Of a DNA stretch of 64,000 bases, positions 1 through 63,782 are shown in pieces. The notes under the pieces are model-generated. The model was not told the DNA's origin and made no database searches. It was given only the letters and a program-made list of their open reading frames with translations. Numbering within the stretch: position 1 is the stretch's first letter; each line of letters starts with the position of its first letter. The translations under genes were made by a program, and so were the position numbers. This stretch comes from Candidatus Omnitrophota bacterium. Its GTDB lineage: Bacteria; Ratteibacteria; UBA8468; B48-G9; DTJG01. The DNA is taken from positions 1 through 64,000 of the forward strand of contig JAMWBU010000007.1 in NCBI GenBank assembly GCA_023819255.1, given 5' to 3'.

Positions 1-308
1 TACCGGACCTAATTGAAATTGGCGTGGATATCATTAATCCTGTGCAGTTCACAGCGAAAAATATGGAACTTGAAAAGCTGAAAAAAGAATTTGGAAAAGA
101 TATAACATTCTGGGCAGGAGGATGCGACACGCAAAATATTCTTCCATATGCAAGTCCATCAAAGGTGAGAGAGCATGTGAAAAGGTGCGTTGAAACTCTT
201 GCTCCGGAAGGTGGTTTTGTTTTCTGCCAGGTTCACAACATTCAGCCTGATGTGCCTGCACAAAATATTATGGCAATGTATGAGGCTGTGAGAGAATTTC
301 ACTCATAA
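1..308 (+). CDS. Uroporphyrinogen decarboxylase-family protein (C-terminal part, cut by window edge)
   Basis: The reading frame is open from base 3 and lacks its N-terminus. The visible roughly 100 residues match the C-terminal half of the UroD/MtaA-like family: an 'IIDxINPVQ'-like strand, a 'WAGGCDTQ' strand-loop, then 'SPSKVREHVKRCVE' and 'APEGGFVFCQVHNIQPDVP'. Members related to MtaA and MtbA move methyl groups from corrinoids, while true HemE decarboxylates uroporphyrinogen. The GG(C/I)xTQ version seen here and in the gene at 32851 fits the methyltransferase-like branch found in sugar-catabolism loci, not haem synthesis; this is inference. Its 3' end overlaps the convergent Gfo/Idh gene by 10 bases. 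Confidence 0.8.
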   Translation, partial: PDLIEIGVDIINPVQFTAKNMELEKLKKEFGKDITFWAGGCDTQNILPYASPSKVREHVKRCVETLAPEGGFVFCQVHNIQPDVPAQNIMAMYEAVREFHS

Positions 309-1486
309 TGCGGCTCAAAATTTTCATCAATAATTACAGGTTTTCCATTTTTGACCATGCTCATTTTCCCTGCTTCAATCACAGATGTCGCGATGATCGC
401 CTGATTGGGTAGGGGCCGTGTTTTTTCAAACGCTGAAATCATCTGTTTTCTTTTTTCAAGCGCTTGTTTCTCGTCAAGAGATGAGGTTGTCTCGATAATT
501 TCAATACAGTCATCTATTGCCTGAACGATACTGCTGGCTCCATAGCCAAGATAGAGGTCAATTTCAGGATTGTTCCAGTCAATGTATGGCTTGAAAAAGT
601 AAGGGTTAAATAACTCATAGCCCGATTTTGTTGTGGAAAAATTGGAATTTCTGTTTGCATTGTCTGCTCTGAATTCTCCCTGTGTGCAGGTCATTTGAAA
701 ACCCTGATTTGAAAGGCAGGGATTTCCATCAGGCAGAATCCATGAAGTTTGAAGATATTGAACCGATCCATTGCTCCATCTGATGAATGCCTGGCAGGCA
801 TCATAGGCATTGATACCAAGTGAAACAAGTAGTTTTTTCTGTCCTGTCGCAATGACTTTTTTCGGAACAAGCCCTGTGATGAATTGGAACATATCAATAT
901 AATGTGTTCCAAGGTATTCAAGAGGACTGCTCCTTTCACACCAGTTTCTAAAATATTTTAGTGGTATTTCTCTCTTTTGCTCATGCCATGCATGGCAGCA
1001 CAGAACCTCTCCCATTTCTCCTCTTTTGTATTTGTACCTTGCTGCCATAAGCGACATATCATGTCTTTTGTGATAGTCAGTAAAAACATAGACTGCTTTT
1101 TCTCTTGATGCCTGCAGTATTGTTTTTGCATCTTTAACTGTCAGGCACAGGGGCTTCTGGACGATAACATGAAACTGGTGTTCAATGGCTGTCAGAGTCA
1201 TTTCCGAATGCAGGTCATCAGGCGTGGCTATTATTACGATTGAAGGTTTCTCCTGGTTTTCCAAAAGTTCCTTCCATGCATCCGGGTCTTCTTCCTTTTT
1301 TTCTGGATACCCTTTTATATTTGCTTCAGGGAAAATCTGCATTAATTCATCAATGGTTTTTTTTCTTCTTGTCGCCACTGAAATTGAAGAGATTTTTCCT
1401 TTTCTTTTTTCCTGAACCAAAACAGGCATTATCACCTGTTTTGTAATCATACCGCCGCCGATAATTGCAACACTGACTTTGTTCAT
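299..1486 (-). CDS. Gfo/Idh/MocA-family NAD(P)-dependent oxidoreductase
   Basis: The product (395 residues) starts with a Rossmann glycine loop ('IIGGGMITK') and has the 'QKPLCL' strand that carries the family's catalytic lysine, followed by the substrate-domain motifs 'YHKRHD' and 'GTHYID'. Such enzymes oxidise or epimerise sugars and inositols. The start is ATG at 1486: it forms an ATGA overlap with the stop of the upstream arabinofuranosidase, whereas a longer reading to 1543 would run into that gene. The protein closely resembles the gene at 58179-59420 (same 'GGGMIT' start and 'EAGxMS' end), so the two look like paralogues. The substrate is unknown. The tight coupling to GH51 suggests a role in pentose or uronic sugar breakdown. 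Confidence 0.9.
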   Translation of the reverse strand: MNKVSVAIIGGGMITKQVIMPVLVQEKRKGKISSISVATRRKKTIDELMQIFPEANIKGYPEKKEEDPDAWKELLENQEKPSIVIIATPDDLHSEMTLTAIEHQFHVIVQKPLCLTVKDAKTILQASREKAVYVFTDYHKRHDMSLMAARYKYKRGEMGEVLCCHAWHEQKREIPLKYFRNWCERSSPLEYLGTHYIDMFQFITGLVPKKVIATGQKKLLVSLGINAYDACQAFIRWSNGSVQYLQTSWILPDGNPCLSNQGFQMTCTQGEFRADNANRNSNFSTTKSGYELFNPYFFKPYIDWNNPEIDLYLGYGASSIVQAIDDCIEIIETTSSLDEKQALEKRKQMISAFEKTRPLPNQAIIATSVIEAGKMSMVKNGKPVIIDENFEPHYE

Positions 1487-3012
1487 TTTTGATTTCTGGT
1501 TTGAATCTTGATCGCTGTTATTGAATGCGCAGGAAAGTTCCATTGCAGATTTTCAGTTTTTACTTTTTCCTGGTATTGCTCCATCTTTATCCTCTCATTA
1601 TCATAGTCGTTTATGGCATCAACATCAGGACCATTGACAACAAACGCGTCAGCATAATTTTTAATTTTGATATTGTGCAGTTCAATTTTGCAGTTAATAT
1701 CTTTTTCAGGGTGTCTGTTAACCGTAATGACGCATAACTGCCCGGATTTTGTGTCGTATGTCGAAGAGACATCGAGATATGGCAGATTATGAATCAGTGG
1801 GATTTTGCTTTCATCCATCTGAAAATTGTCTTTTTTCACATCAAATGTTGGCCAGGGGAAATAACGGTAATCCCTGCATGAGAAACTTTCACAAAAAACA
1901 TCAGGAGCAAGCACCATATCGCCGGTAAGATTTGCAAACAGCATAAAAGGATAGTAGGTGGTTTGCCTTACAAGCCCATCCTGTTTTGTTCTGAGTAGTC
2001 CAAGGCAGTTCACAAGCATTGATTGGTGTGTGAATTCGAGACTTCTGCAAAACCTTAACAGAAGATTCAAAATACTTGCAAAAACAAGGGCATCTTTCAG
2101 ATTATAAATTTCGTCAAGATTGTCCTTGTGCCCTTTTCTATACCAGACGCCAAATTCTGAAAGTGCGAGAAATATTTTTTTTGGTTGCTTTTGCTGGGAA
2201 ATTCTTATGATGTCATCTTCCATTTTCCTGAGATGGTCAGAAATCGTGAGAATCTGGCCAAATGAATCAAGATAGCCGTGCCTTCCGATATAAGTATGAA
2301 CTGAAATTCCGTCAATATAATCCCACGCTGAATCCAGGATTATCCTGTCCCAGTCAGGGTCGTGTTTTCCCATTCCAACAGCAACGATTTTTATTGAAGG
2401 GTCAATCCTTTTCATTGCTTTTGAAAATTCAACAAGTATCCGGCTATACTGGCTGGCTTTTTTTGCGCCAATCTGCCAGTCTCCGTATATCTCATTGCCT
2501 ATTTCCCAGTATTTCACGCCAAAGGGTCTGGTTTCTCCAGTTTCTCTTCGAAGATTTGAATAAAGAGTTTCTCCATTGTAATTGCAGTATTCAACCCATT
2601 CTGCTGCTTCCCTTGGAGTTCCGTCGCCGGCATTTACTGTTATATATGGAGTGCTTTCTGTTTTTCTGCAGAATTTGATATATTCATTTGTGCCGAACAG
2701 ATGATTTTCTTCCCTGATGATTTCGTCTGCGTAGGAAATCTCTGTTTTTCTGTTTTCTTTTGGTCCGATACCATTTTTCCAGCGATACCACGATGAAAAA
2801 TTACCTCCAGGCCATCTGATTGTGGCTGGCTTCAACTTTTTTGTTTCTTCAATAACATCCTTTCGAAATCCATCTTCGTCAGCAAGATGCGACTTAGCAT
2901 CAAAGATTCCGGGATAGACACATTGATGCACATGTTCAATGAAAGAACCGAAAAGGCGCTTGCTTTTTCTTCCCGCGCATCTTGAAAAATCAATAATAAT
3001 GTGAGCCTTCAT
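1483..3012 (-). CDS. Alpha-L-arabinofuranosidase, GH51
   Basis: The 509-residue protein matches GH51 from its first strand ('FGSFIEHVHQCVYPGI', 'DEDGFRKDVIE', 'RWPGGNF'). The acid/base glutamate is E174 in 'IGNEIYGDW', and the nucleophile is most likely E286 in 'LSEFGVWY'. GH51 enzymes release terminal L-arabinofuranose from arabinan, arabinoxylan and arabinogalactan oligosaccharides. No signal peptide is visible, so it probably acts in the cytoplasm on imported oligosaccharides, as is usual for the family. The gene lies two bases downstream of a TIM-barrel epimerase and overlaps the following dehydrogenase by four bases, so the three are one operon. Confidence 0.93.
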   Translation of the reverse strand: MKAHIIIDFSRCAGRKSKRLFGSFIEHVHQCVYPGIFDAKSHLADEDGFRKDVIEETKKLKPATIRWPGGNFSSWYRWKNGIGPKENRKTEISYADEIIREENHLFGTNEYIKFCRKTESTPYITVNAGDGTPREAAEWVEYCNYNGETLYSNLRRETGETRPFGVKYWEIGNEIYGDWQIGAKKASQYSRILVEFSKAMKRIDPSIKIVAVGMGKHDPDWDRIILDSAWDYIDGISVHTYIGRHGYLDSFGQILTISDHLRKMEDDIIRISQQKQPKKIFLALSEFGVWYRKGHKDNLDEIYNLKDALVFASILNLLLRFCRSLEFTHQSMLVNCLGLLRTKQDGLVRQTTYYPFMLFANLTGDMVLAPDVFCESFSCRDYRYFPWPTFDVKKDNFQMDESKIPLIHNLPYLDVSSTYDTKSGQLCVITVNRHPEKDINCKIELHNIKIKNYADAFVVNGPDVDAINDYDNERIKMEQYQEKVKTENLQWNFPAHSITAIKIQTRNQK

Positions 3013-48872: not shown

Positions 48873-48972
48873 ATCTCTCCTTTTCAACAGTCAAATTTTT
48901 CCAACAAAAGGCAAAAATTTCCTTGAACGGAAAATTCTAATATAGTATAACATAATCAATCGGAGGATAATT
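48873..48972. promoter_or_regulatory. Divergent intergenic region between the two glycan operons
   Basis: This 100-base AT-rich gap separates the NagA-like operon (minus) from the DegT operon (plus). The plus promoter is clear (48923-48951); several TATA-like sequences on the minus strand lack a well-spaced -35. Confidence 0.45.
48923..48951 (+). promoter_or_regulatory. Sigma70-like promoter of the DegT operon
   Basis: TTGAAC (48923-48928) and TATAAC (48946-48951) are 17 bases apart. Transcription should start near 48958, giving a 15-base leader that holds CGGAGGA before ATG 48973. Confidence 0.6.
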
Positions 48973-50124
48973 ATGGAAAAAAAGCAGATTCCATTTCTGG
49001 CGATGGGTGGTTTGTATCAACAGGATGACCTTGATGCTGTAATCAGCGTGATAAAAGAAGTATGTGATGGCAGGGGCAGTTTTTTCCCTTTACCTGAAGA
49101 AAATGAGTTTCAACAGCTTTTCGCAGCGCACGAAGGAGCAAGAAAAGCAGTGGCAGTTAATTCCTGTGGGACAGCCCTTGATTGTTGCATGATGGCGCTC
49201 GGTATAGGTGATGGCGACGAGGTAATCACGACACCATTTTCTTTTGTATGCACAGCAGGCACCGCAGTTGCAAGGGGTGCAAGGGTCGTTTTTGCCGACA
49301 TTCATCATGAAACTCTCAATCTTGATCCTGAAAGGGTGAGGGAAAAGATTACTGAAAGAACAAAAGCAATTATCCCTGTCCATTTTGCTGGACTTTCGTG
49401 CGATATCGACGCCTTTGATGCAATTTCAAAAGAGGCAGGAATTCCAGTTATTTATGATGCTGCCCACGCAGTCGGTGCAAAACACAACAATATGCCCATC
49501 GGAGGTAAAGGGAAGGCAAGTTGTTACAGTTTTCAGGGTAACAAGAATATGACATGTCTTGGAGAAGGTGGAGCAGTGACGACCGATGACGACCAGTTTG
49601 CGGAAAGAGTAAGACAGCTAAAAACATTTGGTTATGTGTATGGAGAAAAACTTCGCATTGTGAGCATAGGATTTAACTACCGGATGACAAAGGTTCAGCT
49701 TGCTGCTGGCATAACACAGATTAAAAAAATTGATTTTGTGAACAGTTTAAAAAGAGAAAGAATGCAGAGATTGAATGAATTGCTCAGGGATGTCGATGAG
49801 ATAATTTTGCCACCCGGCATTGATGAAAATCATGCGTGCCATCTTTATGTTATCCGGATCAATACCGATGTTTTAGCGGTAAAAGCTGATCTTTTTGCTG
49901 CGCATCTGAAGAATAATTACGGGATCCAGACAGCAAAGCATTATCCACCTATATGGGAATGGGAGATTTTTGCCACACTGGGATATGATGGTTCTGATTG
50001 TCCTGTCGCTGCTAAAGTGGCATCTCAGGTATTGAGTTTGCCTGTTTTTCCAAACACAACATATGAGGATCTGGAATATATTGCGTACTCTATAAAGCAA
50101 ACAGTTTATGAACTAAGAAAATAG
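48973..50124 (+). CDS. DegT/DnrJ/EryC1/StrS-family PLP aminotransferase
   Basis: The 383-residue protein is a sugar-aminotransferase-type PLP enzyme: 'AVNSCGTALDCCMMALGIGDGDEVITTPFSF', D162 in 'PVIYDAAHAVGA', the PLP lysine K191 in 'SFQGNKNMTCLGEGGAV', and 'GFNYRMTKVQLAAG'. Members transaminate keto-sugars, often nucleotide-linked ones, or act as dehydratases when the lysine is lost; the lysine is kept here. Its pairing with a Gfo/Idh oxidoreductase matches amino-sugar or amino-cyclitol metabolism (oxidise, then transaminate). Stop codon is TAG. Confidence 0.9.
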   Translation: MEKKQIPFLAMGGLYQQDDLDAVISVIKEVCDGRGSFFPLPEENEFQQLFAAHEGARKAVAVNSCGTALDCCMMALGIGDGDEVITTPFSFVCTAGTAVARGARVVFADIHHETLNLDPERVREKITERTKAIIPVHFAGLSCDIDAFDAISKEAGIPVIYDAAHAVGAKHNNMPIGGKGKASCYSFQGNKNMTCLGEGGAVTTDDDQFAERVRQLKTFGYVYGEKLRIVSIGFNYRMTKVQLAAGITQIKKIDFVNSLKRERMQRLNELLRDVDEIILPPGIDENHACHLYVIRINTDVLAVKADLFAAHLKNNYGIQTAKHYPPIWEWEIFATLGYDGSDCPVAAKVASQVLSLPVFPNTTYEDLEYIAYSIKQTVYELRK

Positions 50125-50132
50125 AGGTAAAA

Positions 50133-51140
50133 ATGGAGAAAAAAATAAGATGGGCATTGATCGGAGCAGGAACAATTGCAAAGAAAAGAGTGTGCGCTGC
50201 CATTTTCGATGAACCGCGGAGCGATCTTGTAATTATTGTTGACAGAGATGTCTCAAAAGCAAAGGAGCTGGCGGAACTTTACGGTTGCCAGACATATTCT
50301 GATAATTTTCAGGACGCGATTGAAAATCCCGATGTTGATGCTGTTTATATTGCGACGCCTGTGTTTCTTCATGCTGAACAGACAGTTGCGGCAATAGAAG
50401 CAGGCAAACATGTGATATGCGAAAAGCCTCTTGCTCTTGACTATAGATCGGCCATCAGGGTTGTAAAAGCCGCGCAAAAATCCGGTGTGCGAGCAACCAC
50501 TGCCTATTTCAGAAGATTTTCTCCGAAATATCTTTTTACGAAAGAATTGATAACGAAGGGTATCTTTGAAAAAATTTTGTTGACGAGGATATGCTACCAC
50601 ACATGGTTTCAAATTTTGCCACAGAGTCCGTTATTCTGGAGGGCACAAAAGGATCTTTCAGGAGGCGGAATTATTTTTGATATGGGCTCGCATATGTTTG
50701 ATGTTTTGATTGGCCTTTTTGGACTGCCTGTCAGTGTTTTTGCAAAAATGCGAAAAATTGTTTTTGATTACAGCGTCGAAGATTCCTCAGCCATAATAAT
50801 GGAATATGAAAATGGCATGCTGGTGACAGCCAGTTTTAACTGGAATTCAAAAACTTATGCGCACGAATTTGAAATTATTGGAACCCGGGCTAAGATAAGA
50901 TGGATTCCTTACGACGGGGATAAGATTACTTTGATCACTGACAGTAAGGTGGAAGAGGTGGAAAAACCAAATTACAAAAATGTGCATTACCCATTAATAG
51001 AGGATTTTGTATCCGCCATCAAGGAAAATAGAAATCCTGCTATATCAATGGAAGATGCCGCAAAGACAAATCTTTTAATGGAGGCATGTTATCTTTCATC
51101 TCAACAATCAAGGGAAATATACCTGAAGGAGATTTCTTAA
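50133..51140 (+). CDS. Gfo/Idh/MocA-family oxidoreductase
   Basis: The 335 residues have the Rossmann loop 'IGAGTIAKKRV', the conserved 'VYIATPVFLHAEQ' and the catalytic lysine K98 in 'VICEKPLAL', plus 'GGGIIFDMGSHMFDVLIGL'. It should oxidise or reduce a sugar or cyclitol hydroxyl with NAD(P). AGAGGT precedes the ATG, eight bases after the DegT stop. The likely role is to supply the keto substrate for the aminotransferase, which is inference. Confidence 0.9.
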   Translation: MEKKIRWALIGAGTIAKKRVCAAIFDEPRSDLVIIVDRDVSKAKELAELYGCQTYSDNFQDAIENPDVDAVYIATPVFLHAEQTVAAIEAGKHVICEKPLALDYRSAIRVVKAAQKSGVRATTAYFRRFSPKYLFTKELITKGIFEKILLTRICYHTWFQILPQSPLFWRAQKDLSGGGIIFDMGSHMFDVLIGLFGLPVSVFAKMRKIVFDYSVEDSSAIIMEYENGMLVTASFNWNSKTYAHEFEIIGTRAKIRWIPYDGDKITLITDSKVEEVEKPNYKNVHYPLIEDFVSAIKENRNPAISMEDAAKTNLLMEACYLSSQQSREIYLKEIS

Positions 51141-52393
51141 TGACTTTATTACCTGCTCCACCAGAGAATGACTTTGCTTTTTTTATTTCGACATATTATC
51201 AGGAGTGCAAAAATAGATTTGGAAAGATTGAAGCGATTGCAGGAAAATGGGAATTTGAAGATTTAATACCTGGCTTGAGCGATTTTGACAGTAGATACAT
51301 TTGTTCAGACCAGATGGGTGCGCAGGACTGGTGTGATATGTCAATGATTGTTGGAAATGTGCATCTTGAACTTTGCAAAAGGTTTCCACAATGGATAAGA
51401 ATTCTTGAACATCTACCAGGAATTAACATCACATGGCAGGAATTGACAGGTGAAAATACATATTACCCGGAGTATAAACAATGGAGCTTTTATCATACCT
51501 CAAATGAGAGAAATCATATCTCAGCAAAGACACATATCGAATTAAGGAAATGGGATCTAAAGGACGAATATTTCCATCTTAAAAAATTTCTAACTTATTA
51601 CGGACCTTATGACAGAAATATAGATGTGCCAATAAATCTGGGCAGATTTATCGTCAAGTATCCCCTTCATAGCAGAGTTATGCATTATTTTAACCCGCCT
51701 GTTCAGTCTGCTGTTTCCATTATTACAAAAGGAACAGTCAGGGGTAAAAAGGAATCTTTTAGATTGGCTCAGAAGTTATTTCCTCATTGTGCAATATTTG
51801 GTGAGATGCTTGATCTTGTCGACAGGCATTATGAAGAGCCATCATTGTATCAGGAAAAGGCTCTGTCATTCTTAGAGAGCAGAATGTTTGAAACACTGAA
51901 AGAACTTCTCAAAGAGATTTTAGAGAATATATCCTTGGTCCCTGATGCTAAAAATAAAACAGACCGGCAGCTTAAAGAGGTTTTGAGAAATTTGCAAACT
52001 GAGAAAAACCTGGTAATTTTTGAAAACGCAAAATTTGCGCGGCTTATGAAAGGCAGGTTATTTTTCTATATCAATGCTCCTGATTACTTTGATAGTGTTT
52101 ATCTTATAAGAAATGAAATGAGACGTATTGGAAGAAATTTTTTCATTGTGCCATTTTCAATTTTCTGGGAATTGAAAACAGGAGAAAGGATCCAGGATCC
52201 TTCAACTATACTCAATGAATTAGACGACGTTTTAACGAAAGATGAGATCAACTGCACTTTGAAATTTGCTCAACTCACAAAGCTTGATTATGAGAATAAA
52301 GAAATGGAGATTGCCCGTCAAATTATTGATATCTATGACGGTTTTTACAGCGCTCTCCATAAAATAACAGAACTTGTCAAAAAAAGTGGGTGA
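51140..52393 (+). CDS. Uncharacterised protein with nucleotidyltransferase-like motif
   Basis: The 417-residue protein contains 'DLIPGLSDFDSRYI' (about 41-54), where D48 and D50 match the D-h-D-h core of nucleotidyltransferase-fold proteins; the usual upstream GS pair is replaced by PGL. Following motifs 'CDMSMIVGNVHLELCKRFP' and 'LEHLPGINITWQEL' look conserved within a family, but I cannot name it. The rest is largely helical. AAGGAG precedes the ATG, which overlaps the previous stop by one base (TAATG). No signal peptide. Confidence 0.65.
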   Translation: MTLLPAPPENDFAFFISTYYQECKNRFGKIEAIAGKWEFEDLIPGLSDFDSRYICSDQMGAQDWCDMSMIVGNVHLELCKRFPQWIRILEHLPGINITWQELTGENTYYPEYKQWSFYHTSNERNHISAKTHIELRKWDLKDEYFHLKKFLTYYGPYDRNIDVPINLGRFIVKYPLHSRVMHYFNPPVQSAVSIITKGTVRGKKESFRLAQKLFPHCAIFGEMLDLVDRHYEEPSLYQEKALSFLESRMFETLKELLKEILENISLVPDAKNKTDRQLKEVLRNLQTEKNLVIFENAKFARLMKGRLFFYINAPDYFDSVYLIRNEMRRIGRNFFIVPFSIFWELKTGERIQDPSTILNELDDVLTKDEINCTLKFAQLTKLDYENKEMEIARQIIDIYDGFYSALHKITELVKKSG

Positions 52394-52396
52394 AAA

Positions 52397-53530
52397 ATGA
52401 AGATAAAGGCATATCCTTTAAAAAACAACAGATTCTCTAACTGGTATACCGAAGTGATTAACAGATGGCATTATGAGGATTTTATAAAAGATCCAGACTG
52501 GAAAAATGGGTGGATCAGTTTTGATTGTTGTTTTTATTTAAACGACCTGAAAAACTTATATCTGGGTTTAACATCATTCAATTCGGATATATTTTACGGA
52601 TTTGATACGGTTAAGAAAGTTTTTTTCTCCTGCGGTTATGAAAGAGTAAAAGACAAATATGATGCAAAATTTCACCGTTCACTTGTATTTTCTGAAAAAG
52701 ATAAGTGTTTATATGGGGCTGTTGCGCAACTTCATGACATTGACAGCTACTACGACGCTCCTGGCGGAGCAATTGTAAGATTTGACATTTTACATAATAA
52801 AATCGAAAAAATTTGTATTCCAGCGCCGCACGCATATATCCAGTCAATTTGCATTGATGATAACAAAGGCATTATTTACGGGATTACCTTAAATCCAGAG
52901 GAGATGTTCAGTTATGAGATAAGTTCGGGCAGGGTCGAAAAACTTGGTGTTTTCGGAAGCGCTTACAGTATTGCTCAGGGCGAAAATATAGAGATTGATA
53001 ATCAGGGTTGCGTCTGGTGTGGCTGGAATATTTTAAGACCATGGCAGAGTTCACCCGGACCTGATGAACATCGCCTTTGCAAGTTTAATCCGGATAAAAA
53101 AAAGATGATTTATTTTAAAGATGGTCTTGAAAACCCTGAGGGCGATGGATTTGTAAAGGTGGAAGGAATTTTTAATCTTGGCTGTGGATTGTTTGCAAGC
53201 GGCGGAAATGGTTCAATATTCAGGATTAATACAGAGACAGGCCACGGAGAATATATTTGTACTCCAATTAAGGACAGAAAAAGCCGTCTTGCTTCTCTAA
53301 AAATGGCTCCTGACGGTTGCGCATATGGGGTTGTGGGGAAGGAAGGATATTGCCAGCTACTTAGGTTTGATCCATTCAAGGGCAGTTTTCATCTGCTTGG
53401 CGAGATTGAATATGGCGGCGAGAAATGCTGGCAGGTTCATGACATAGCGATTACTCAGGATTTCGTAATTTATGCCTGTGAGAACGATAATCCTTATAGA
53501 GCGTCATACCTGTGGGAAATTTCTCTTTAA
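52397..53530 (+). CDS. Beta-propeller-like protein of unknown function
   Basis: The 377-residue protein shows repeated blade-like units such as 'IVRFDILHNKIEKI', 'MFSYEISSGRVEKLGVFG', 'LCKFNPDKKKMIYF' and 'IFRINTETGHGEYI', as in SMP30/YncE-type propellers. 'DAPGGAIVRFD' and 'GGNGSIFRIN' mark strand turns. Catalytic residues cannot be assigned. No signal peptide is present, unusual for a propeller of this type outside lactonase-like enzymes; a sugar lactonase role next to the dehydrogenases is possible. Confidence 0.65.
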   Translation: MKIKAYPLKNNRFSNWYTEVINRWHYEDFIKDPDWKNGWISFDCCFYLNDLKNLYLGLTSFNSDIFYGFDTVKKVFFSCGYERVKDKYDAKFHRSLVFSEKDKCLYGAVAQLHDIDSYYDAPGGAIVRFDILHNKIEKICIPAPHAYIQSICIDDNKGIIYGITLNPEEMFSYEISSGRVEKLGVFGSAYSIAQGENIEIDNQGCVWCGWNILRPWQSSPGPDEHRLCKFNPDKKKMIYFKDGLENPEGDGFVKVEGIFNLGCGLFASGGNGSIFRINTETGHGEYICTPIKDRKSRLASLKMAPDGCAYGVVGKEGYCQLLRFDPFKGSFHLLGEIEYGGEKCWQVHDIAITQDFVIYACENDNPYRASYLWEISL

Positions 53531-53538
53531 GGAGGAAT

Positions 53539-55146
53539 ATGAAGATTAAGATTGCTGGAGAAAGCTGGAGAAAATATTATTTGTTTGATATGATACGACG
53601 ACTTGGCATTCTTGCGCAGGTTACCGATGATGAAAGCGCTGATATGATTCTGGTGAGTGAAAATGTGAAGGATTTGGAAGTGGATCGGATTCTGGATTTC
53701 GCGCGAAACGGGAAAATTGTCGTTTTTCTTCAACCAGAATCAAGAGTTCTTAAATATTTTGGCGATGAGCTAATGTACACGCATCATTTCCCATTGATGA
53801 AGCTTGATTGCGATGGAATTTTAGCGAGTTTTTTGCAGGTTTTCCCGCCTGTTTGTTTAATAAAACAGAAGCAGGGAGAAAATTATGGAGCTTTTGCTTT
53901 TGATTTTTCTCGTTCCGGAGAAAACTATACAACAAAATATCCAGCGATAACTTTGAGAAATTTCGGTTCAGGTAAAATATGCCTTTTCCTGTATGATTTT
54001 ATTTCCACGATGCTTTTGCTTCTTCAGGGATGGGAATTTTTCACCTCTGAAGGCGGACTTGCGCATCAATCAAGATTAGCCACCAGCCGGGCAAGGCATT
54101 TATCCGATCACCTAATAAATAAGGAACTTTATTTAATTCCGCAGGCCTATTTTCACGAACTATTGCTTCTTTATCTTTTAAGAAGGATGGCGCGTCCGAA
54201 AGACCCTTTGCCGAGAATCTGGTATTATCCATCATCATACACAGCGGCATTTCTTCTTAATGGTGATAGCGATAATCTTGAGAAAAAATATCTTGAAAAG
54301 GCATGGAATATGCTTTTGAAAAAGGGCTTGAAATATACGCAGTATATTATGACACAGGACATTGAAAAATTTTCAAGTGATGAAATTTCCTGCTGGTCGA
54401 AAAAAGGAATTGATTTTGGGCTTCATTATTTTGCGGGAATTTCACCATCAGAAGGAGAAATGTTAGATCATATAACGGAAGCAAGAAAAGTATTTGAGGA
54501 AAAAGGCCAGAAAATAATTTCCTGCCGGGGCCATAGCTGCATCTGGGTTGGATGGGATGGTCAGATTAAAATTATGGAAAAGAGCAAGATTTTGTATTCA
54601 TCAAATCTTCTTTACTGGCATCCAGGAGTAAGTTATGGTTTTCCATATAATCTCTATAAGAAATCAGGTCGATCCAGTGTTCAGGAATTACAGATTTTTT
54701 GTTCTGACGATGTAATGCTTTTTAACAAGTCAGGAATGCTTCCTCTTAAGCCTGTTCAATATATGAAAAATATAATCGCCTGGCTGGACATTAATAATGA
54801 CCTGTACTATCAGCCAGTAAATCCAATCTTTCATCCCTTTTATCTTGTCAAACAACCATCGACCTCTGAAATCTTGAGCGAAAGCGTGGAATTTGCAAAA
54901 AGCAAAGATATCATTGTTACAAACCACAAGAAGTTTTTCCAGTGGTGGGAGAAAAGAAAGAGAGTAAAATTGACCTATAAGGTTGTTGATGATTCAATCC
55001 AGTTTGATCGGAAAGAACTAGATCCAGAGATCGCAATTGCCGTGCCTGAACAATGGAAGGTAAATGTTTTTCCTGAAAGGAAAATGCTTAAAGGCACCTG
55101 TGAAAAGCTTTTTTATGAAAAAAGGAGCAATGGCTATGAAGAATGA
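53539..55146 (+). CDS. Polysaccharide-deacetylase-like protein with N-terminal GATase-like domain
   Basis: The 535-residue protein has an N-terminal flavodoxin-like part (1-200; 'ADMILVSENVKDLEVDRIL', 'GKIVVFLQPESRVL'). A NodB-like region starts near 'AAFLLNGDSDN', where the usual T-F-D-D metal motif appears as N-G-D-S-D-N, with later 'FGLHYFAG' and 'SCRGHSCIW'. If active, it would be an N- or O-deacetylase with altered metal ligands. AAGGAGG precedes ATG 53539; a reading to 53512 overlaps the propeller gene without support. The stop overlaps the next gene by 11 bases. Confidence 0.6.
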   Translation: MKIKIAGESWRKYYLFDMIRRLGILAQVTDDESADMILVSENVKDLEVDRILDFARNGKIVVFLQPESRVLKYFGDELMYTHHFPLMKLDCDGILASFLQVFPPVCLIKQKQGENYGAFAFDFSRSGENYTTKYPAITLRNFGSGKICLFLYDFISTMLLLLQGWEFFTSEGGLAHQSRLATSRARHLSDHLINKELYLIPQAYFHELLLLYLLRRMARPKDPLPRIWYYPSSYTAAFLLNGDSDNLEKKYLEKAWNMLLKKGLKYTQYIMTQDIEKFSSDEISCWSKKGIDFGLHYFAGISPSEGEMLDHITEARKVFEEKGQKIISCRGHSCIWVGWDGQIKIMEKSKILYSSNLLYWHPGVSYGFPYNLYKKSGRSSVQELQIFCSDDVMLFNKSGMLPLKPVQYMKNIIAWLDINNDLYYQPVNPIFHPFYLVKQPSTSEILSESVEFAKSKDIIVTNHKKFFQWWEKRKRVKLTYKVVDDSIQFDRKELDPEIAIAVPEQWKVNVFPERKMLKGTCEKLFYEKRSNGYEE

Positions 55147-56143
55147 TTTTTTTGAAATAAGACTGGGTTTTATTTGCCGGGTCAAAGAAGAAGGGTGGGA
55201 ACAAGCTTTTAGTAAATACAAAAAAGAATTCGGAATTTCTGAAAGCACAGCAAAAAAATGGTGGAAATGGTATGAAAAGGAAGTATGCGTTTCTCAGGTA
55301 TGCTACGAGACAGATTCCGGGCCGGAAATTATTAAAAGCGCAAAAGGAAAGGCAAAGCGCATTGAACAATTGCCTCTTGTCGTCAAAGGTCCGCTGATGG
55401 TGGAATTCAACGGGGCTGTTTACAGGATTGAGCGTGAAGGGCTTTACAGGTTTACAATAATGACAAAAAGCGTCAGGAATCTGATAATGGTAATTGATGA
55501 AAATTCAGTAATGCCGATACTCAAAGCCCTTTCTTTAATCCAGATTCATGGAAACAGAGACCAGAATTTTTCGCTGGAGGAAAAGAAAAATCTTGTTCTG
55601 TCAAGATACTGGATTTCCCTGACCTGTGGAGATATCGCGGCTCTCACGCAAAAAATTCTTGAAGATGCGGGATTTAAATCAAGGCTGGTCAGCGCCCTGA
55701 CGACCCGGAGCTGGAATACCTACAACAATGGACATGTGCTTTTAGAAGTTTTTTTCCCTTCACTGTCGGGATGGGTTCTTACTGACATTGATATGGGTTA
55801 TATCTTTATGCAAAACGGTGCCCTTGTGAGTGCGATAGAATTTTACAGATGTGTGAAAGAAAACAGACAGCCAGATTTTGTACTTTTATCAAAAAAGGAA
55901 ATAGACCCTTTGTGGCTTGAAAGCAATGGTTTTTCTTATTCTCATATGTGGAGAACGATCGTCACACATATCCCTTCTAAATGGATGTGGTATAGAAGGA
56001 TTTTTCAGACATTCGGTATGAAAGAAAACAACAGATTTATTTATCTTGCCGAGGGCAATGATGCCAAGAGAGTTTTTCAGTACAGGGGGCACTATGCGAA
56101 AGTAATGCCTGAAAAAGAGTTCCAGAAAAAGTTCTATGGATAA
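55136..56143 (+). CDS. Transglutaminase-like (cysteine protease fold) protein
   Basis: In this 335-residue protein C164 ('SLTCGDIAALTQKILEDAG'), H200 ('NNGHVLLEVFF') and D217 or D219 ('GWVLTDIDMG') match the Cys-His-Asp triad of transglutaminase-like enzymes; in bacteria these are usually peptidases or amidases. The first 60 residues carry an HTH-like 'FGISESTAKKWWKWYEKEV' segment that may bind nucleic acid or a partner. ATG 55136 has AAAGGAG at eight bases. No signal peptide, so it works inside the cell. Confidence 0.65.
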   Translation: MKNDFFEIRLGFICRVKEEGWEQAFSKYKKEFGISESTAKKWWKWYEKEVCVSQVCYETDSGPEIIKSAKGKAKRIEQLPLVVKGPLMVEFNGAVYRIEREGLYRFTIMTKSVRNLIMVIDENSVMPILKALSLIQIHGNRDQNFSLEEKKNLVLSRYWISLTCGDIAALTQKILEDAGFKSRLVSALTTRSWNTYNNGHVLLEVFFPSLSGWVLTDIDMGYIFMQNGALVSAIEFYRCVKENRQPDFVLLSKKEIDPLWLESNGFSYSHMWRTIVTHIPSKWMWYRRIFQTFGMKENNRFIYLAEGNDAKRVFQYRGHYAKVMPEKEFQKKFYG

Positions 56144-56163
56144 ATTAAAAAAGAGAGGAAAAA

Positions 56164-57351
56164 ATGGAGAAAATTGTTAGATGGGGAATTATCGGTCTCG
56201 GACACAGGGGAAGTGCTCTATCGTATCTGTGCCATCATATTGTTCCGCAAAGCAAGGTAGTTGCTCTTTGCGACACAATAAAGCCACTGGCAGAGAAAGC
56301 AGCAAGAAATTTGAAAGATCCGGATATCAAAATCTACACTGATTTTATGCAAATGCTGAAGAATGAAGATATTGATGTTGTCGGGGTTTTTGTTGCGCCA
56401 GAGGACAATCCTGACATTGTTTGTGAGGTTCTCGAAGCAGGAAAGCACGTTCTGTGCGAGGTTCCGCTTGCTTTAACAATGGAGGGCTGCTGGAAAATAG
56501 TAACCACAGTTGAAAAGACAGGTCTGAAATTCCAGATGGCCGAGCAATTAAGGTATGCCGCTTTTGTAAGAAGCTGGAAAAAAATGGTGGCTGAAAATAT
56601 GCTGGGAAAAATTCTTTATTGCGAGGGACAGTATCTTCACGGAATGGGACCTGATAGATACTGGATTAATAGTGAAACAGGAGAAAGGGTTTCCATTGAT
56701 GAAGCCGAAAAAGGAAAACTTCCTTTGAAAAAAACAAGGTTCTGGAATTTGAAACATCCAATCTATTACCTTCCTCATGAACTCAGCCCTTTTCTTTGTA
56801 TACTTGATGACAGGGTGGTGAAAGTTGTTGGAATGTCAACAAAGGTGCCATCTTACAGGTACCAGTGGTTTCCGCAGGCAGACATTGAAGTCGCTCTTAT
56901 GCATACCGAAAAGGATACAATAATGAGATTGATGGCTGGATTTACGATAGAAAATCTTTCTGGAAGCGAACACTCCAACCGAATGGTGGGGACAAAGGGC
57001 TGGGTTGAGCAGCCGAAAACAAAATCAGAAAAAGGAAAGATGTGGTTATCAGGATTTTATTTTTCTGACAGAATGGATGTAGAATGGGGATATTCAAAAT
57101 ACTGGGAAGTTCCGCGTTCTGCTTTAAGCACCGGCCATGGTGGAAATGATTATTATCCAGTTTTTAATATGGTTGAGGCGATACGGCTCGACAAACCAGT
57201 CGAGATGGATGTTTATAAAGCGGCAGATACCGCAGCGCCAGCAATTCTTGCAGGATTATCGATAGAAAACGGAAGTATTCCTTTTAATGTTCCAGATTTC
57301 GCCCCTGGAAATAACAGGCGTTCAGGGAAGATGCCAGATAAACTTTTTTGA
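56164..57351 (+). CDS. Gfo/Idh/MocA-family protein with substituted catalytic lysine (EVP variant)
   Basis: The 395-residue protein has the Rossmann start 'IIGLGHRGSAL' and 'VFVAPEDNPDIVCEVLEAGKHVLCEVPLAL'. The usual E-K-P motif reads E-V-P, so the catalytic lysine is valine at position 100. 'AEQLRYAAFVRSWK' and 'YYLPHELSPFL' follow. Some family members share this EVP form, and their reaction is unsettled. GAGAGG precedes the ATG. The araC-type regulator begins four bases after its stop. Confidence 0.85.
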   Translation: MEKIVRWGIIGLGHRGSALSYLCHHIVPQSKVVALCDTIKPLAEKAARNLKDPDIKIYTDFMQMLKNEDIDVVGVFVAPEDNPDIVCEVLEAGKHVLCEVPLALTMEGCWKIVTTVEKTGLKFQMAEQLRYAAFVRSWKKMVAENMLGKILYCEGQYLHGMGPDRYWINSETGERVSIDEAEKGKLPLKKTRFWNLKHPIYYLPHELSPFLCILDDRVVKVVGMSTKVPSYRYQWFPQADIEVALMHTEKDTIMRLMAGFTIENLSGSEHSNRMVGTKGWVEQPKTKSEKGKMWLSGFYFSDRMDVEWGYSKYWEVPRSALSTGHGGNDYYPVFNMVEAIRLDKPVEMDVYKAADTAAPAILAGLSIENGSIPFNVPDFAPGNNRRSGKMPDKLF

Positions 57352-57355
57352 ATGG

Positions 57356-58177
57356 ATGATAAAAAAAGAACAATTCAGGTATGATCGAATTTCAGGAAGT
57401 AGGTTCAGCGGTTATGGAACAAGAGACGAACCTCCTTTTTTTCATCATCCTGCGATAGAAATTCAATTGTTCTTGCATGGCAATGCCAGATATTTCATCA
57501 AGGACACTGTATACCAGGTGAGCAAGAATTCTCTCCTTATCATCCACAAAAATGAAATTCACAGATACCTGCCACATCCGGAAATAGAGATAGAGAGACT
57601 TAATATTGTTTTTCCTTCGTTTTTTGTTAGATCAAGAAAGGCTATAAAGCAGATTGTAGAAAAAAAACTTTCTGAAATCCATCATATAATTCTTCCTGAA
57701 AAAGAAGCCACGATAATAAGGTTCTTGATGGAAGACATAATAAAAGAGGTTCTTCATAAGGATGCTTTCTGGAAAGATGCGGTTATGGCAAGCATTGAAA
57801 AAATTTTTGTTATGCTTAACAGGATCAAGTACAGGACAGAAGACACAAAGAAGGAATCGGATTTAATAAAAGAAATCATTTCCTATATTGATCTTCATTT
57901 CAAAAACAGCATAAGGCTCGAGGATATTGCCAGAAATTTTAAAAGGTCCATATTTACTCTCAGCAGAAGTTTTAAGAAAACCACAGGTATAGGTTTCAAA
58001 GAGTATCTTAACAACAAAAAAATTGTTGAAGCCAAAAAAATGCTTGAAACAGGTTCTTACAAAATTCTGACAGTTGCACATGAATGCGGGTTCTCAGATA
58101 TTTCATCATTTAACAAAGCATTCAAACGGTTAACAGGAATAACGCCCACAATGTACAGAGAGATTATGACTCCCTGA
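57356..58177 (+). CDS. AraC-family transcriptional regulator with cupin sensor domain
   Basis: The 273-residue protein has an N-terminal cupin (1-120; 'HHPAIEIQLFLHGNARYFI', 'LLIIHKNEIHRYLPHP') that should bind a sugar, and a C-terminal double helix-turn-helix (about 175-270; 'RLEDIARNFKRSIFTLSRSFKKTTG', 'ILTVAHECGFSDISSFNKAFKRLTGITP'). It is the last gene of the DegT operon and is the natural candidate to control the divergent promoters at 48873-48972, which is inference. Reading from 57287 would overlap the dehydrogenase, so ATG 57356 is preferred. Confidence 0.88.
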   Translation: MIKKEQFRYDRISGSRFSGYGTRDEPPFFHHPAIEIQLFLHGNARYFIKDTVYQVSKNSLLIIHKNEIHRYLPHPEIEIERLNIVFPSFFVRSRKAIKQIVEKKLSEIHHIILPEKEATIIRFLMEDIIKEVLHKDAFWKDAVMASIEKIFVMLNRIKYRTEDTKKESDLIKEIISYIDLHFKNSIRLEDIARNFKRSIFTLSRSFKKTTGIGFKEYLNNKKIVEAKKMLETGSYKILTVAHECGFSDISSFNKAFKRLTGITPTMYREIMTP

Positions 58178-58178
58178 C

Positions 58179-59420
58179 TTATCTGAAGGCAATATGCGGT
58201 TGAGGTTCATAAAATATTCTTACAGGCCTTCCATCATTCAGTATTGACATCCTTCCTGCTTCAACGACAAGCTCATTAATAAAACTGTTTGCCGGCGTCG
58301 CAATAATTCCTTTCGCATCTATATCCTTTATGAGTTTTTTTCTCATTTCTATATCATCACCTGCATTATCCTCGATGTTTTTAATTGCACCAATAATTGC
58401 TGACACTGAGTCAGGTCCATAGCCGACAGGTTTATATCCTTCGCCTTCCCACGGGACAAATCTGAAAAAGTCAGGGCTTACATAATTGTAAGCAGAGCCA
58501 CCAGGACCGATATCTTCAAGATAACAATAAGCAACTCCCCTGTATTGGTCGTCATGTTTTATCATACCTGTTTTCCCATTTCCTTCGCAGTACATCAAGA
58601 GTCCCTGGTCGTTGCTTCCGGCTCCAGCATCAGGATAACCAAGTCCGTTTGTCACAGACAGCAGCGCATCGTTTTCAAATCTCACTCTCGCATCTGACCA
58701 CATAAATCCAGTATTACCATTAGGAAATTTTCCTTTTACACCTTCCACAGAAACTTCAACGGGTTTAAGTCCTGTAATGAAATAAACAAGATCCACATAA
58801 TGACAGCCAATATAAACAAATGGGTCTGTTCTGTCCACTGTAAACCAGTTCTGGAAGTTTGAATATCTGTAATAGTAAGGTTCTATGAGTTTTGCTTCTC
58901 CGATTGCAAATTCTCCAAAATGTCCAAGCATGTATGCCCTTTTTGCCATAAGAGACCTTCTGTCAAATCTTTTGTGATATTCAACACCAACAAAAAGACC
59001 CTTTTCCATTAAAATATTTTCTATCTCTTCTGCCTGTTTATACTGGAGCACAAGCGGCTTTACGCATAGCACATGCTGATTGTTTTTAAGCGCTTCCATA
59101 ACCACTTCATAGTGCAGGTTATCAGGCATTGCAACAACAACCACCTGTCTTGGTTTCATTTCTGAAATAACCTTTTTGTAGAGTTCAGGATAGTTTTTGT
59201 CATCCGGCTCAGAAAAATCAGGATATGGTGTAAATGATTGATCAGGAAATGCTTGTTTGAGTTCCTGGTTATCTCTTAGATATTTCAGTGGAGCGCTATT
59301 GAGCGCGCATATTTTTATTTCTCCGACTATTTTTGTTCTCTGAAGGTGATAAATTGAGGGTAATAGCAAATCATTGGTAATCATTCCTCCGCCCACAATT
59401 GTTACATCTATACTTTTCAT
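58179..59420 (-). CDS. Gfo/Idh/MocA-family oxidoreductase
   Basis: The 413-residue protein has 'TIVGGGMITNDLLLPS', 'VVAMPDNLHYEVVMEAL' and the catalytic-strand motif 'VLCVKPLVLQ', then 'YHKRFDRRSL' and 'YIGCHYVDLVYFITGL'. It is a paralogue of the gene at 299-1486. ATG 59420 has AGGAGG six bases upstream; reading to 59450 passes through the ribosome site. It ends one base from the convergent AraC gene. The substrate is unknown. Confidence 0.9.
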   Translation of the reverse strand: MKSIDVTIVGGGMITNDLLLPSIYHLQRTKIVGEIKICALNSAPLKYLRDNQELKQAFPDQSFTPYPDFSEPDDKNYPELYKKVISEMKPRQVVVVAMPDNLHYEVVMEALKNNQHVLCVKPLVLQYKQAEEIENILMEKGLFVGVEYHKRFDRRSLMAKRAYMLGHFGEFAIGEAKLIEPYYYRYSNFQNWFTVDRTDPFVYIGCHYVDLVYFITGLKPVEVSVEGVKGKFPNGNTGFMWSDARVRFENDALLSVTNGLGYPDAGAGSNDQGLLMYCEGNGKTGMIKHDDQYRGVAYCYLEDIGPGGSAYNYVSPDFFRFVPWEGEGYKPVGYGPDSVSAIIGAIKNIEDNAGDDIEMRKKLIKDIDAKGIIATPANSFINELVVEAGRMSILNDGRPVRIFYEPQPHIAFR

Positions 59421-59451
59421 CTGCGCCTCCTGTAATTTTTCATAGTACAAT

Positions 59452-61907: not shown

Positions 61908-63782
61908 TCATTCAATGTTAATCAAATATCCGGCTCCGTTTTCAGTGTTTCTTGGATTGACGGCTTTTTGCCATGTTCCAGAAGAGAATTCATTATTTCC
62001 TTTTCCAAGGTCAATAAGAAAACTGAAATTCCCACCTATGGAATTTTTTGGATGATACTCGAGTGGGCCGCAGATTCCCTGAACCCTTAAGGCGTTTTTT
62101 CCCGTATATGTATCAGAGCCGTCTCCATCAATAAGTATTGCCCAGGAGCCCTGGCACGCAAAGCCCTGTCCGCTGATAGTTGCGGTATAACTGTCATCTC
62201 CGGAAAAATCGACAAGCGCTGCGGTTCCTATGTCCCATCCGAAGCCCTGTATTCCGAGAGTTCCAATATATGTGTCGTTTCCTGTGTCATCGTATAACAG
62301 ACCTACCGCGTAATGGCAGGCATAACCAAATCCGTATCGCGTGAAATTATTGGTCAGGGGCCTGCGGATGTCATTTCCTCCAAAATCCCTTGCAATTCCT
62401 GCGGCAAACCAGTATCCTCCAGTGGAAAAATAATCAGCTTCATAAGTATCATCTCCACCGCCATCAAGCATTATTCCGAACCCGCCATTTGAAATTCCTC
62501 TGAAACCAGAACCGCAGCCCTGAGACCATGCATGCTTGTAATAATGCGGTGGTTCCTGATATGGTTCATCATACTTGCCGCCTGCCCTGTAGCAATCATC
62601 GCCATCTGTATCTTCAAATACGCCAATTCCAAGCATTCCTCCATAGCCCTGTCCGAAAAGATTTGTCGAGTACCTGTCGTTCCCTTTTCTGTCTATAAGA
62701 ATCCCAATTCCGCAAAGTGCGCTTCCCTGATTTCTTCTGTCTCCGTTATAAATGTCCTGCCCATCGTCATCAACAAGAATTCCGATGCCCATCAGCCCGA
62801 CTCCCTGACATACATCAGCGCCATCGTAAACATCATTTCCGCTTTTATCGTAGAGGATGCTAATTCCAAAGAAACCAGCACCCTGCGCAAAACCATCAGG
62901 GGCAAGATACCTGTCATTTCCTTCAAAATCAATAATTAACAGCACAGGTTTTTCAATGCCGGTTTTTCCACCTGTGTAAGTATCATTTCCTCCAGGGTCG
63001 ATTACACATACGATATTTTTCATCTTATCAAGATCGTATCTGTCATTTCTTTTTGAACCGACCAGAACCTTTCCGTATTTTCCTGGTTTCATTTTTTTAA
63101 AATTTTCAAAATCAGGATGGTTCAAAATATCTATTAAAACAATGGTTGCTTCTACCATTTTGTTTAATTCTATTCTGGAAGCCATTGAGGCAAGCGCAAG
63201 GCCAGCTTCTCTTTCGGGTAAAGAATGTGCGACGATATCTCCAATTTGCCTTACTGCGAGTCGCTCTGTAAGTTCCATAAATTCAGCCATTTTAGCAGGC
63301 GAGAAACTGGTAAAGGCAGATTGAACATATTTTTCCGCAATCGAAATCTTTTTATTCAAGTAAGAAATGGTTAATTTTTCTCTGTCAGGCGTTTCATTTA
63401 TTTGAACTTCTAAGTCAAGTAATTTTGCGCACTCTTTCAAAATGTCGTTAAAAGCCCCATTTTTACATAGTTGATGCAACTTTTGAGTGATCTGTTCTCC
63501 TTCAACAATACAGTCGACAGGATTGCGCAGCCACCTATCAATTGTTTTTAATCTGAAATAGCCATTCTTGTCATTCCACCATCTATCCCCGCTTGTTCTG
63601 TCAAGGATATCCGAAACATATTTTGTATATTGCTGGTAAATGTTCAATTGATTATTGTCTTTCAGAGTTTGCGTAATGATTCTGACTGCCCTTTTTACAA
63701 TTTCATCTGTTTTTTGTGTTTGGCAGAACGTGAAAACTGAAAAGAAAATCGGAGTGAAAATAAAAATTCGAAATATTTTCAT
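61908..63782 (-). CDS. Exported protein with 11 RTX-like 'DxxGNDxY' repeats
   Basis: The 624-residue protein has a signal peptide (ending near 'VFTFCQTQ'), a helical N-terminal domain (25-240), and a repeat domain with D-x-x-G-x-D-x-Y turns at residues 262, 285, 312, 338, 364, 391, 440, 466, 498, 525 and 552. Most are 26-27 residues apart, separated by 'QGxGxxGxGIL'-like strands. The pattern suggests a calcium-binding beta-solenoid related to, but longer per turn than, RTX nonapeptides. No protease or adhesin motif is evident. Its start overlaps the phosphohexomutase stop as ATGA. Confidence 0.8.
   Translation of the reverse strand: MKIFRIFIFTPIFFSVFTFCQTQKTDEIVKRAVRIITQTLKDNNQLNIYQQYTKYVSDILDRTSGDRWWNDKNGYFRLKTIDRWLRNPVDCIVEGEQITQKLHQLCKNGAFNDILKECAKLLDLEVQINETPDREKLTISYLNKKISIAEKYVQSAFTSFSPAKMAEFMELTERLAVRQIGDIVAHSLPEREAGLALASMASRIELNKMVEATIVLIDILNHPDFENFKKMKPGKYGKVLVGSKRNDRYDLDKMKNIVCVIDPGGNDTYTGGKTGIEKPVLLIIDFEGNDRYLAPDGFAQGAGFFGISILYDKSGNDVYDGADVCQGVGLMGIGILVDDDGQDIYNGDRRNQGSALCGIGILIDRKGNDRYSTNLFGQGYGGMLGIGVFEDTDGDDCYRAGGKYDEPYQEPPHYYKHAWSQGCGSGFRGISNGGFGIMLDGGGDDTYEADYFSTGGYWFAAGIARDFGGNDIRRPLTNNFTRYGFGYACHYAVGLLYDDTGNDTYIGTLGIQGFGWDIGTAALVDFSGDDSYTATISGQGFACQGSWAILIDGDGSDTYTGKNALRVQGICGPLEYHPKNSIGGNFSFLIDLGKGNNEFSSGTWQKAVNPRNTENGAGYLINIE

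What the first reader, a model, noticed from the sequence alone, without database searches (positions are those of the whole stretch)
48973..58177. Divergent pair of operons pointing to an undescribed amino-sugar or cyclitol pathway
The plus operon (DegT aminotransferase, Gfo/Idh, NTase-like, propeller, deacetylase-like, transglutaminase-like, Gfo/Idh with EVP, AraC) is built of tightly spaced genes, none with a signal peptide. Dehydrogenase plus aminotransferase is a known way to make an amino sugar; a nucleotidyltransferase-like protein could activate it. The four middle proteins have no assigned role together. The divergent minus operon supplies hydrolases, a NagA-like deacetylase and an amidase, so the region may degrade one amino-glycan or make one. 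This is inference from gene order.
Basis: partly seen in the sequence, partly recalled or inferred. Interest (0 to 1): 0.65.

Follow-up and report, generated by a model that had tools for sequence, protein, structure and literature searches.

The report
Conserved amino-sugar-type operon shared between phyla
A tightly packed bacterial gene set (an aminotransferase, two sugar-dehydrogenase-type proteins, a deacetylase-like protein and two protein families with no known role) turns out to be the same gene set found in a very different bacterial phylum, so it is very probably a real, still undescribed pathway that handles an amino sugar or a similar amino compound.

Summary
The genes are there as described: DegT, idh1, orphan 51140, propeller, NodB-like protein, transglutaminase-like protein, idh2 and AraC, nearly without gaps, behind one sigma70-like promoter conserved in sister genomes. 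In the genus it looks weak: G004 keeps only deac-TG-idh2, G006 keeps these plus a 33-codon degT stub (a deletion), and G003 has lost everything. Across phyla it is strong: 9 of 64 genomes of an unrelated phylum carry the 51140 family. In all 8 that can be judged it lies beside a degT ortholog (57-67% identity). Five also carry idh1 (44%), the propeller (51-53%) and a deac-like gene in one run with 51140; four of these have an idh2 ortholog (42%) nearby. A DegT tree groups them with support 1.0. So this is a conserved, patchily inherited pathway. Corrections: idh2 is GH109-like, not plainly a dehydrogenase; the deac protein has the NodB fold but no HxxxH metal motif; the transglutaminase is genus-specific; the minus operon persists where the plus operon is lost and is absent from the other phylum, so it is not part of it. 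Substrate and direction remain inferred; I favour turnover of an N-acylated amino sugar or aminocyclitol.

The parts
48923..48951 (+). sigma70-like promoter TTGAAC-N17-TATAAC of the plus operon
   Evidence: same position and spacing in G006 and G004; pattern found once in the window, 0 expected
48973..50124 (+). degT: PLP sugar-aminotransferase (DegT/DnrJ/EryC1/StrS), PLP lysine K191
   Evidence: PF01041 337 bits; K191 invariant; orthologs 57-67% in another phylum, clade support 1.0
50133..51140 (+). idh1: Gfo/Idh/MocA oxidoreductase with EKP motif
   Evidence: PF01408 101.7 bits; ortholog 44% directly after degT in five genomes of another phylum
51140..52393 (+). 51140: orphan family, NTase-like motif GKW..D-L-P-G..SDFD.R
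   Evidence: no Pfam or PDB hit; 42-49% orthologs in nine genomes, always with degT where it can be judged
52397..53530 (+). 52397: beta-propeller family, function unknown
   Evidence: profile matches designed beta-propellers in the PDB; 51-54% orthologs next to 51140 in six genomes of another phylum
53539..55146 (+). 53539: GATase/GH42-trimerisation-like domain plus NodB-like (deacetylase-type) domain
   Evidence: AF2 model matches Agd3, NDST1, PelA and CE4 structures; canonical HxxxH metal motif absent
55136..56143 (+). 55136: transglutaminase-like protein, genus-specific, C164-H200-D217
   Evidence: Transglut_core 19.6 bits; triad conserved; not found outside the genus
56164..57351 (+). idh2: GH109-like Gfo/Idh, EVP in place of EKP, Y157, H205, H325 in TGHGG loop
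   Evidence: best PDB hits are GH109 (6t2b 4.8e-20, 2ixa 6.2e-19); catalytic residues as listed in PMC10755693
57356..58177 (+). AraC-family regulator, only in the full-length version of the operon (G000, G002)
   Evidence: HTH_18 75.7 bits; present at the G002 contig end, absent in G004 and G006

Best explanation
The plus strand from 48923 to 57351 is one operon, and it is this genome's copy of a pathway gene cluster that is conserved between unrelated bacterial phyla and is inherited patchily. Most likely mechanism: idh1 and DegT work as a pair that interconverts hydroxyl, keto and amino groups on a sugar or cyclitol (as NtdC/NtdA do for kanosamine). The NodB-like 53539 removes an N-acyl group. 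The GH109-like idh2 cleaves the glycoside (or oxidises the sugar). 51140, if it is a nucleotidyltransferase, activates or tags the amino compound, and the propeller acts as a lyase or lactonase, or binds the sugar. I judge breakdown or remodelling of an N-acylated amino sugar or aminocyclitol likelier than its synthesis. Shown by sequence: one transcription unit, cross-phylum conservation, catalytic residues of DegT, the transglutaminase and idh2. Inferred: substrate, direction, and the roles of 51140, 52397 and 53539.
For: Conservation: 51140 homologues in 9 of 64 genomes of another phylum; a degT ortholog nearby in 8 of 8 that can be judged; propeller in 7 of 8; idh1 in 6 of 8 (5 orthologous at 44%, plus G178 at 31%); deac-like gene in 6 of 8; idh2 ortholog in 4. 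DegT and idh1 trees join the window with these, support 1.0. No DegT in its own phylum outside G000/G002 exceeds 42% identity. One promoter, conserved in sister genomes. degT stub in G006. Chemistry: DegT with K191, GH109 residues in idh2, NodB fold matching N-deacetylases of hexosamine polymers. A second, independent DegT/deac-like/Gfo-Idh association in G007, G010, G335 and (without Gfo/Idh) G013. For breakdown: SSF symporter between degT and 51140 in G393, amidohydrolases and NodB-like genes near the clusters; no glycosyltransferase or acetyltransferase in the window operon.
Against: No substrate is known. In G178 and G392 the neighbour of 51140 is an AAC(3)-type N-acetyltransferase instead of a deacetylase, which fits synthesis equally well. 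The nearest named DegT enzymes are biosynthetic (PseC, ArnB). H205 of idh2 is Tyr in the other phylum. 53539 lacks HxxxH. deac, TG and idh2 persist without DegT in G004 and G006.
Confidence: 0.5

Rival explanations
1. Biosynthesis: idh1 oxidises a sugar phosphate or cyclitol, DegT aminates it, 51140 activates or adenylylates it, and the cluster makes a small amino-sugar or aminocyclitol product that is exported.
For: DegT is nearest to biosynthetic PseC/ArnB-type enzymes; NTase-like motif; AAC(3)-type acetyltransferase beside 51140 in G178 and G392; a DUF6785/6784 protein of unknown function upstream of degT.
Against: No glycosyltransferase, dehydratase, carrier or phosphatase in the operon; NodB-like and GH109-like hydrolase folds; SSF uptake-type symporter in G393.
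Confidence: 0.33
2. Two modules under one promoter: degT-idh1-51140-52397 is one pathway and deac-TG-idh2 is another, joined only for shared regulation.
For: G006 lost exactly the first four genes and kept the last three (60-78% identity); G004 has only the last three.
Against: In five genomes of another phylum a deac-like gene lies between idh1 and 51140, and four of these carry the idh2 ortholog upstream of degT; the deac-like gene there is only about 15-22% identical, so orthology is not certain.
Confidence: 0.3
3. The minus operon (NagA-like, amidase, C1 peptidase, DUF2961, BNR, GH42-type) and the plus operon together degrade one amino-glycan.
For: Divergent arrangement around one intergenic region; glycan-degradation genes on the minus strand.
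Against: G003 keeps nagA and the amidase with the plus operon absent; no nagA or other minus-operon homologue in the other-phylum loci.
Confidence: 0.08

Closest known systems
NtdCAB / KabCAB kanosamine operon of Bacillus (PMC8788734)
   Same: Gfo/Idh dehydrogenase next to a DegT-family aminotransferase in one short operon without glycosyltransferases
   Different: no phosphatase (NtdB) here; extra NodB-like, propeller, orphan 51140 and GH109-like genes; the DegT gives only 152 bits to NtdA
GH109 NAD-dependent glycosidases (AmGH109A, 6T2B)
   Same: Gfo/Idh fold; equivalents of Tyr226, His259 and His404 (Y157, H205, H325) and the TGHGG loop in idh2 of this genus
   Different: Pfam GH109_C score 20.0, below the cut-off of 27; H205 is Tyr in cross-phylum orthologs
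Agd3 (CE18), NDST1 N-deacetylase, PelA
   Same: N-terminal Rossmann/GATase-like domain followed by a NodB-like domain; best Foldseek hits of the 53539 model
   Different: no HxxxH metal motif; sequence similarity undetectable; partial model confidence (pLDDT 67)
PseC / ArnB nucleotide-sugar aminotransferases
   Same: best-scoring NCBIfam and PDB relatives of DegT; PLP lysine conserved
   Different: 252 and 232 bits against cut-offs of 423 and 631; no nucleotide-sugar genes in the operon

Membership tests
DegT/DnrJ/EryC1/StrS aminotransferases | PF01041 domain above cut-off | tested here: met
   337.4 bits, cut-off 19.8
DegT/DnrJ/EryC1/StrS aminotransferases | PLP-binding lysine | tested here: met
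   K191 invariant in all seven DegT aligned
PseC or ArnB equivalog | NCBIfam equivalog score | tested here: not met
   252.3 against 423.5; 232.2 against 631
Gfo/Idh/MocA dehydrogenase (idh1) | Rossmann domain and EKP lysine | tested here: met
   PF01408 101.7 bits; CEKP in the alignment
GH109 (idh2) | catalytic Tyr, His and His of the GGHGG loop | tested here: met
   Y157, H205, H325 in the window, G004, G006, G007, G010; H205 is Tyr in the four cross-phylum orthologs examined (residues named in PMC10755693)
GH109 (idh2) | curated family score (Pfam Glyco_hydro_109_C) | tested here: not met
   20.0 bits, cut-off 27
GH109 (idh2) | NAD-dependent glycosidase activity | not testable with these tools
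   needs an enzyme assay
CE4 / CE18 deacetylases (53539) | NodB-like fold | tested here: met
   Foldseek hits to CE4 structures, Agd3, NDST1, PelA, probability 1.00
CE4 / CE18 deacetylases (53539) | Asp-His-His triad with HxxxH | tested here: not met
   D243, H332, H432 invariant, H296 variable, no HxxxH (motif from PMC7229062)
Transglutaminase-like superfamily (55136) | Cys-His-Asp triad | tested here: met
   C164, H200, D217 conserved in four genomes
Transglutaminase-like superfamily (55136) | Pfam score above cut-off | tested here: not met
   19.6 against 23
Nucleotidyltransferase superfamily (51140) | G-x-(W)...D-x-D metal motif | tested here: inconclusive
   GKW..D-L-P-G..SDFD.R invariant in ten sequences, but no profile or PDB match and the AF2 model failed
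NtdABC-type kanosamine operon | third gene: sugar-phosphate phosphatase (NtdB) | tested here: not met
   no phosphatase among the operon genes in the Pfam and NCBIfam scans

The most novel reading that the evidence does not exclude
An undescribed pathway, shared by horizontal transfer between unrelated candidate phyla, in which DegT and Gfo/Idh enzymes work with a new nucleotidyltransferase-like family, a new propeller enzyme family and a non-canonical NodB hydrolase on an N-acylated amino sugar or aminocyclitol that no known pathway covers.
Probability: 0.4. Interest if true: 0.75.

Novelty: new variant of a known kind. Interest (0 to 1): 0.6.

Why it matters
Three protein families without assigned function (51140, 52397, 53539) get a firm shared genetic context and concrete substrate classes to test. 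The cluster is a defined target: six genes, conserved between phyla that diverged long ago, with a natural deletion series in the host genus. If the pathway is new, it would add an amino-sugar or aminocyclitol route in uncultured bacteria, and it shows that GH109-like and NodB-like folds are used next to DegT chemistry.

Tried and rejected
The one genome-contig scan with 51140 found only the sister genome. A first sample of 99 genomes suggested 51140 was an orphan of one genus; the larger sample overturned this. I first read the four-gene block as an insertion into a three-gene core; the degT stub in G006 shows a deletion there instead. Membership of 53539 in CE4/CE18 was rejected for want of HxxxH. 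PDB profile searches with A5 (TG) and A4 (deac) found nothing. A search of the small phylum of G335 added no further genome. Chance proximity was rejected by the cross-phylum conservation. Literature searches found no paper holding these terms together; subscription journals are largely missing from that library.

Full report
What is there. All eight plus-strand ORFs are present at the stated positions with gaps of -11 to +20 bp. Pfam and NCBIfam assign DegT (337 bits), two Gfo/Idh proteins (101.7 and 70.1 bits) and AraC; the transglutaminase match is below cut-off, and 51140, 52397 and 53539 are unassigned. The nearest named record to the sister genome G002 is a 'Candidatus Omnitrophota' MAG. 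The window's phylum, as held, has 35 genomes; that it is Ratteibacteria is my guess.

One transcription unit with a conserved promoter. A sigma70-like site TTGAAC-N17-TATAAC lies at 48923-48951. The same spacing and the TAGTATAAC core occur upstream of the shortened operons of G006 and G004; the pattern occurs once in the window with none expected in shuffles. G003 keeps a -10-like relic (TATAGTATAGCAC) where the operon is missing; this last point is suggestive only.

A deletion series in the genus. G000 and G002 have the full set. G006 keeps promoter, start codon and 33 homologous codons of degT, fused directly in front of deac-TG-idh2. G004 has deac-TG-idh2 only. In G003, nagA and 58179 are adjacent and the whole plus operon is gone. 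So degT-idh1-51140-52397 was removed as a block at least in G006, and deac-TG-idh2 can persist alone. The minus-strand genes nagA and amidase survive in G003 without the plus operon; they are neighbours, not partners.

The cross-phylum cluster. In 386 genomes 51140 hit G178 of another phylum at 43% identity over its full length. There it lies directly downstream of a DegT that is 58% identical to the window's, whereas the best DegT in the window's own phylum outside G000/G002 is at most 42% over a part. Searching that phylum (64 genomes) gave nine genomes. In eight the surroundings can be judged (G392 starts inside the cluster). degT ortholog: 8 of 8, 57-67%. Propeller: 7 of 8, 39% in G393 and 51-54% in the others. 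idh1: G403-G407 at 44%, plus a 31% relative in G178. deac-like gene: G403-G407 and G401. idh2 ortholog: G403-G406, about 42%. In G403-G407 the order is DUF6785/6784 protein - degT - idh1 - deac-like - 51140 - propeller; in the window it is degT - idh1 - 51140 - propeller - deac - TG - idh2. Trees group window DegT and idh1 with these sequences at support 1.0. GC3 differs greatly (0.33-0.42 in the window, about 0.75-0.89 in G401 and G403-G407), so any transfer between the lineages is not recent. A rescan with the ten-sequence profile in 386 genomes added no further phylum.

A second DegT/deac association. Distant relatives of 53539 (20-22% identity) in G007, G010, G013 and G335 lie directly downstream of a DegT of a different subfamily; a Gfo/Idh lies upstream in G007, G010 and G335. 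The DegT tree separates this subfamily with support 1.0. NodB-like protein plus DegT plus Gfo/Idh has therefore come together in two DegT lineages.

What the proteins are likely to do. DegT: PLP lysine K191; nearest PseC/ArnB but far below equivalog cut-offs. idh1: EKP-type Gfo/Idh. idh2: best PDB relatives are GH109 glycosidases. The three catalytic residues reported for AmGH109A, Tyr226, His259 and His404 (PMC10755693), correspond to Y157, H205 and H325, all kept in this genus and in the G007/G010 proteins, while the other phylum has Tyr for H205. 53539: a moderate AF2 model (pLDDT 66.8) matches Agd3, NDST1, PelA and CE4 enzymes; the HxxxH metal motif of those families (PMC7229062) is absent, while D243, H332, W336, H432-P433-x-Y435 are invariant across all subfamilies. 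51140: invariant GKW..D-L-P-G..SDFD.R block, compatible with a nucleotidyltransferase, not proven. 52397: beta-propeller by profile, with invariant H93, H145, H348, K91, R94. TG: intact triad, genus-only.

Interpretation. The conserved unit and its link to DegT chemistry are well supported. The substrate class (amino sugar or aminocyclitol) follows from established knowledge of DegT and Gfo/Idh pairs such as NtdA/NtdC (PMC8788734). Direction is open. The hydrolase folds, the SSF symporter in G393 and the lack of glycosyltransferases favour breakdown; the AAC(3)-type acetyltransferase beside 51140 in G178 and G392 and the biosynthetic nature of the nearest named DegT enzymes favour synthesis.

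Limits. No expression or enzyme data exist here.

Noticed in passing
L012, L013, L053, L055 (G007, G010, G013, G335): A separate conserved pair: DegT of another subfamily directly followed by a 53539-like NodB protein, mostly with a Gfo/Idh upstream, near GH42/GHL6/GH20b-type genes.
   Followed up: partly
L041:7293-8441, L036, L039, L040, L035: Paralogues of propeller 52397 sit in a second conserved cluster in the genus, beside a 290-aa amidohydrolase-like gene, a 291-aa gene and a secreted protein of about 840 aa.
   Followed up: partly
L033:2870-8796 (G032): Two tandem 52397-family propellers next to two transglutaminase-like genes and a GHL15 gene: propeller and transglutaminase associate again, with other subfamilies.
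   Followed up: partly
L077:3-1856 (G011): Spurious ORFs translating to repeated SIPACAGES / VYPRVCGGI strings, as type I-E CRISPR repeats do; probably a CRISPR array.
   Followed up: no
L093:8389-9162 and L103:1250-2074: AAC(3)-type aminoglycoside N-acetyltransferase homologue directly downstream of 51140 in G178 and G392.
   Followed up: partly
window 299-1543 and 58179-59450: Two related Gfo/Idh genes (GGGMIT... N-termini) near the two ends of the window; 58179 is kept at 85-90% identity in sister genomes regardless of the plus operon.
   Followed up: no
window 61908-63782: 624-aa protein made of repeated GND-Y / GGDD-Y motifs; a similar protein lies in G003 (L088:9956-11539); not identified.
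   Followed up: no
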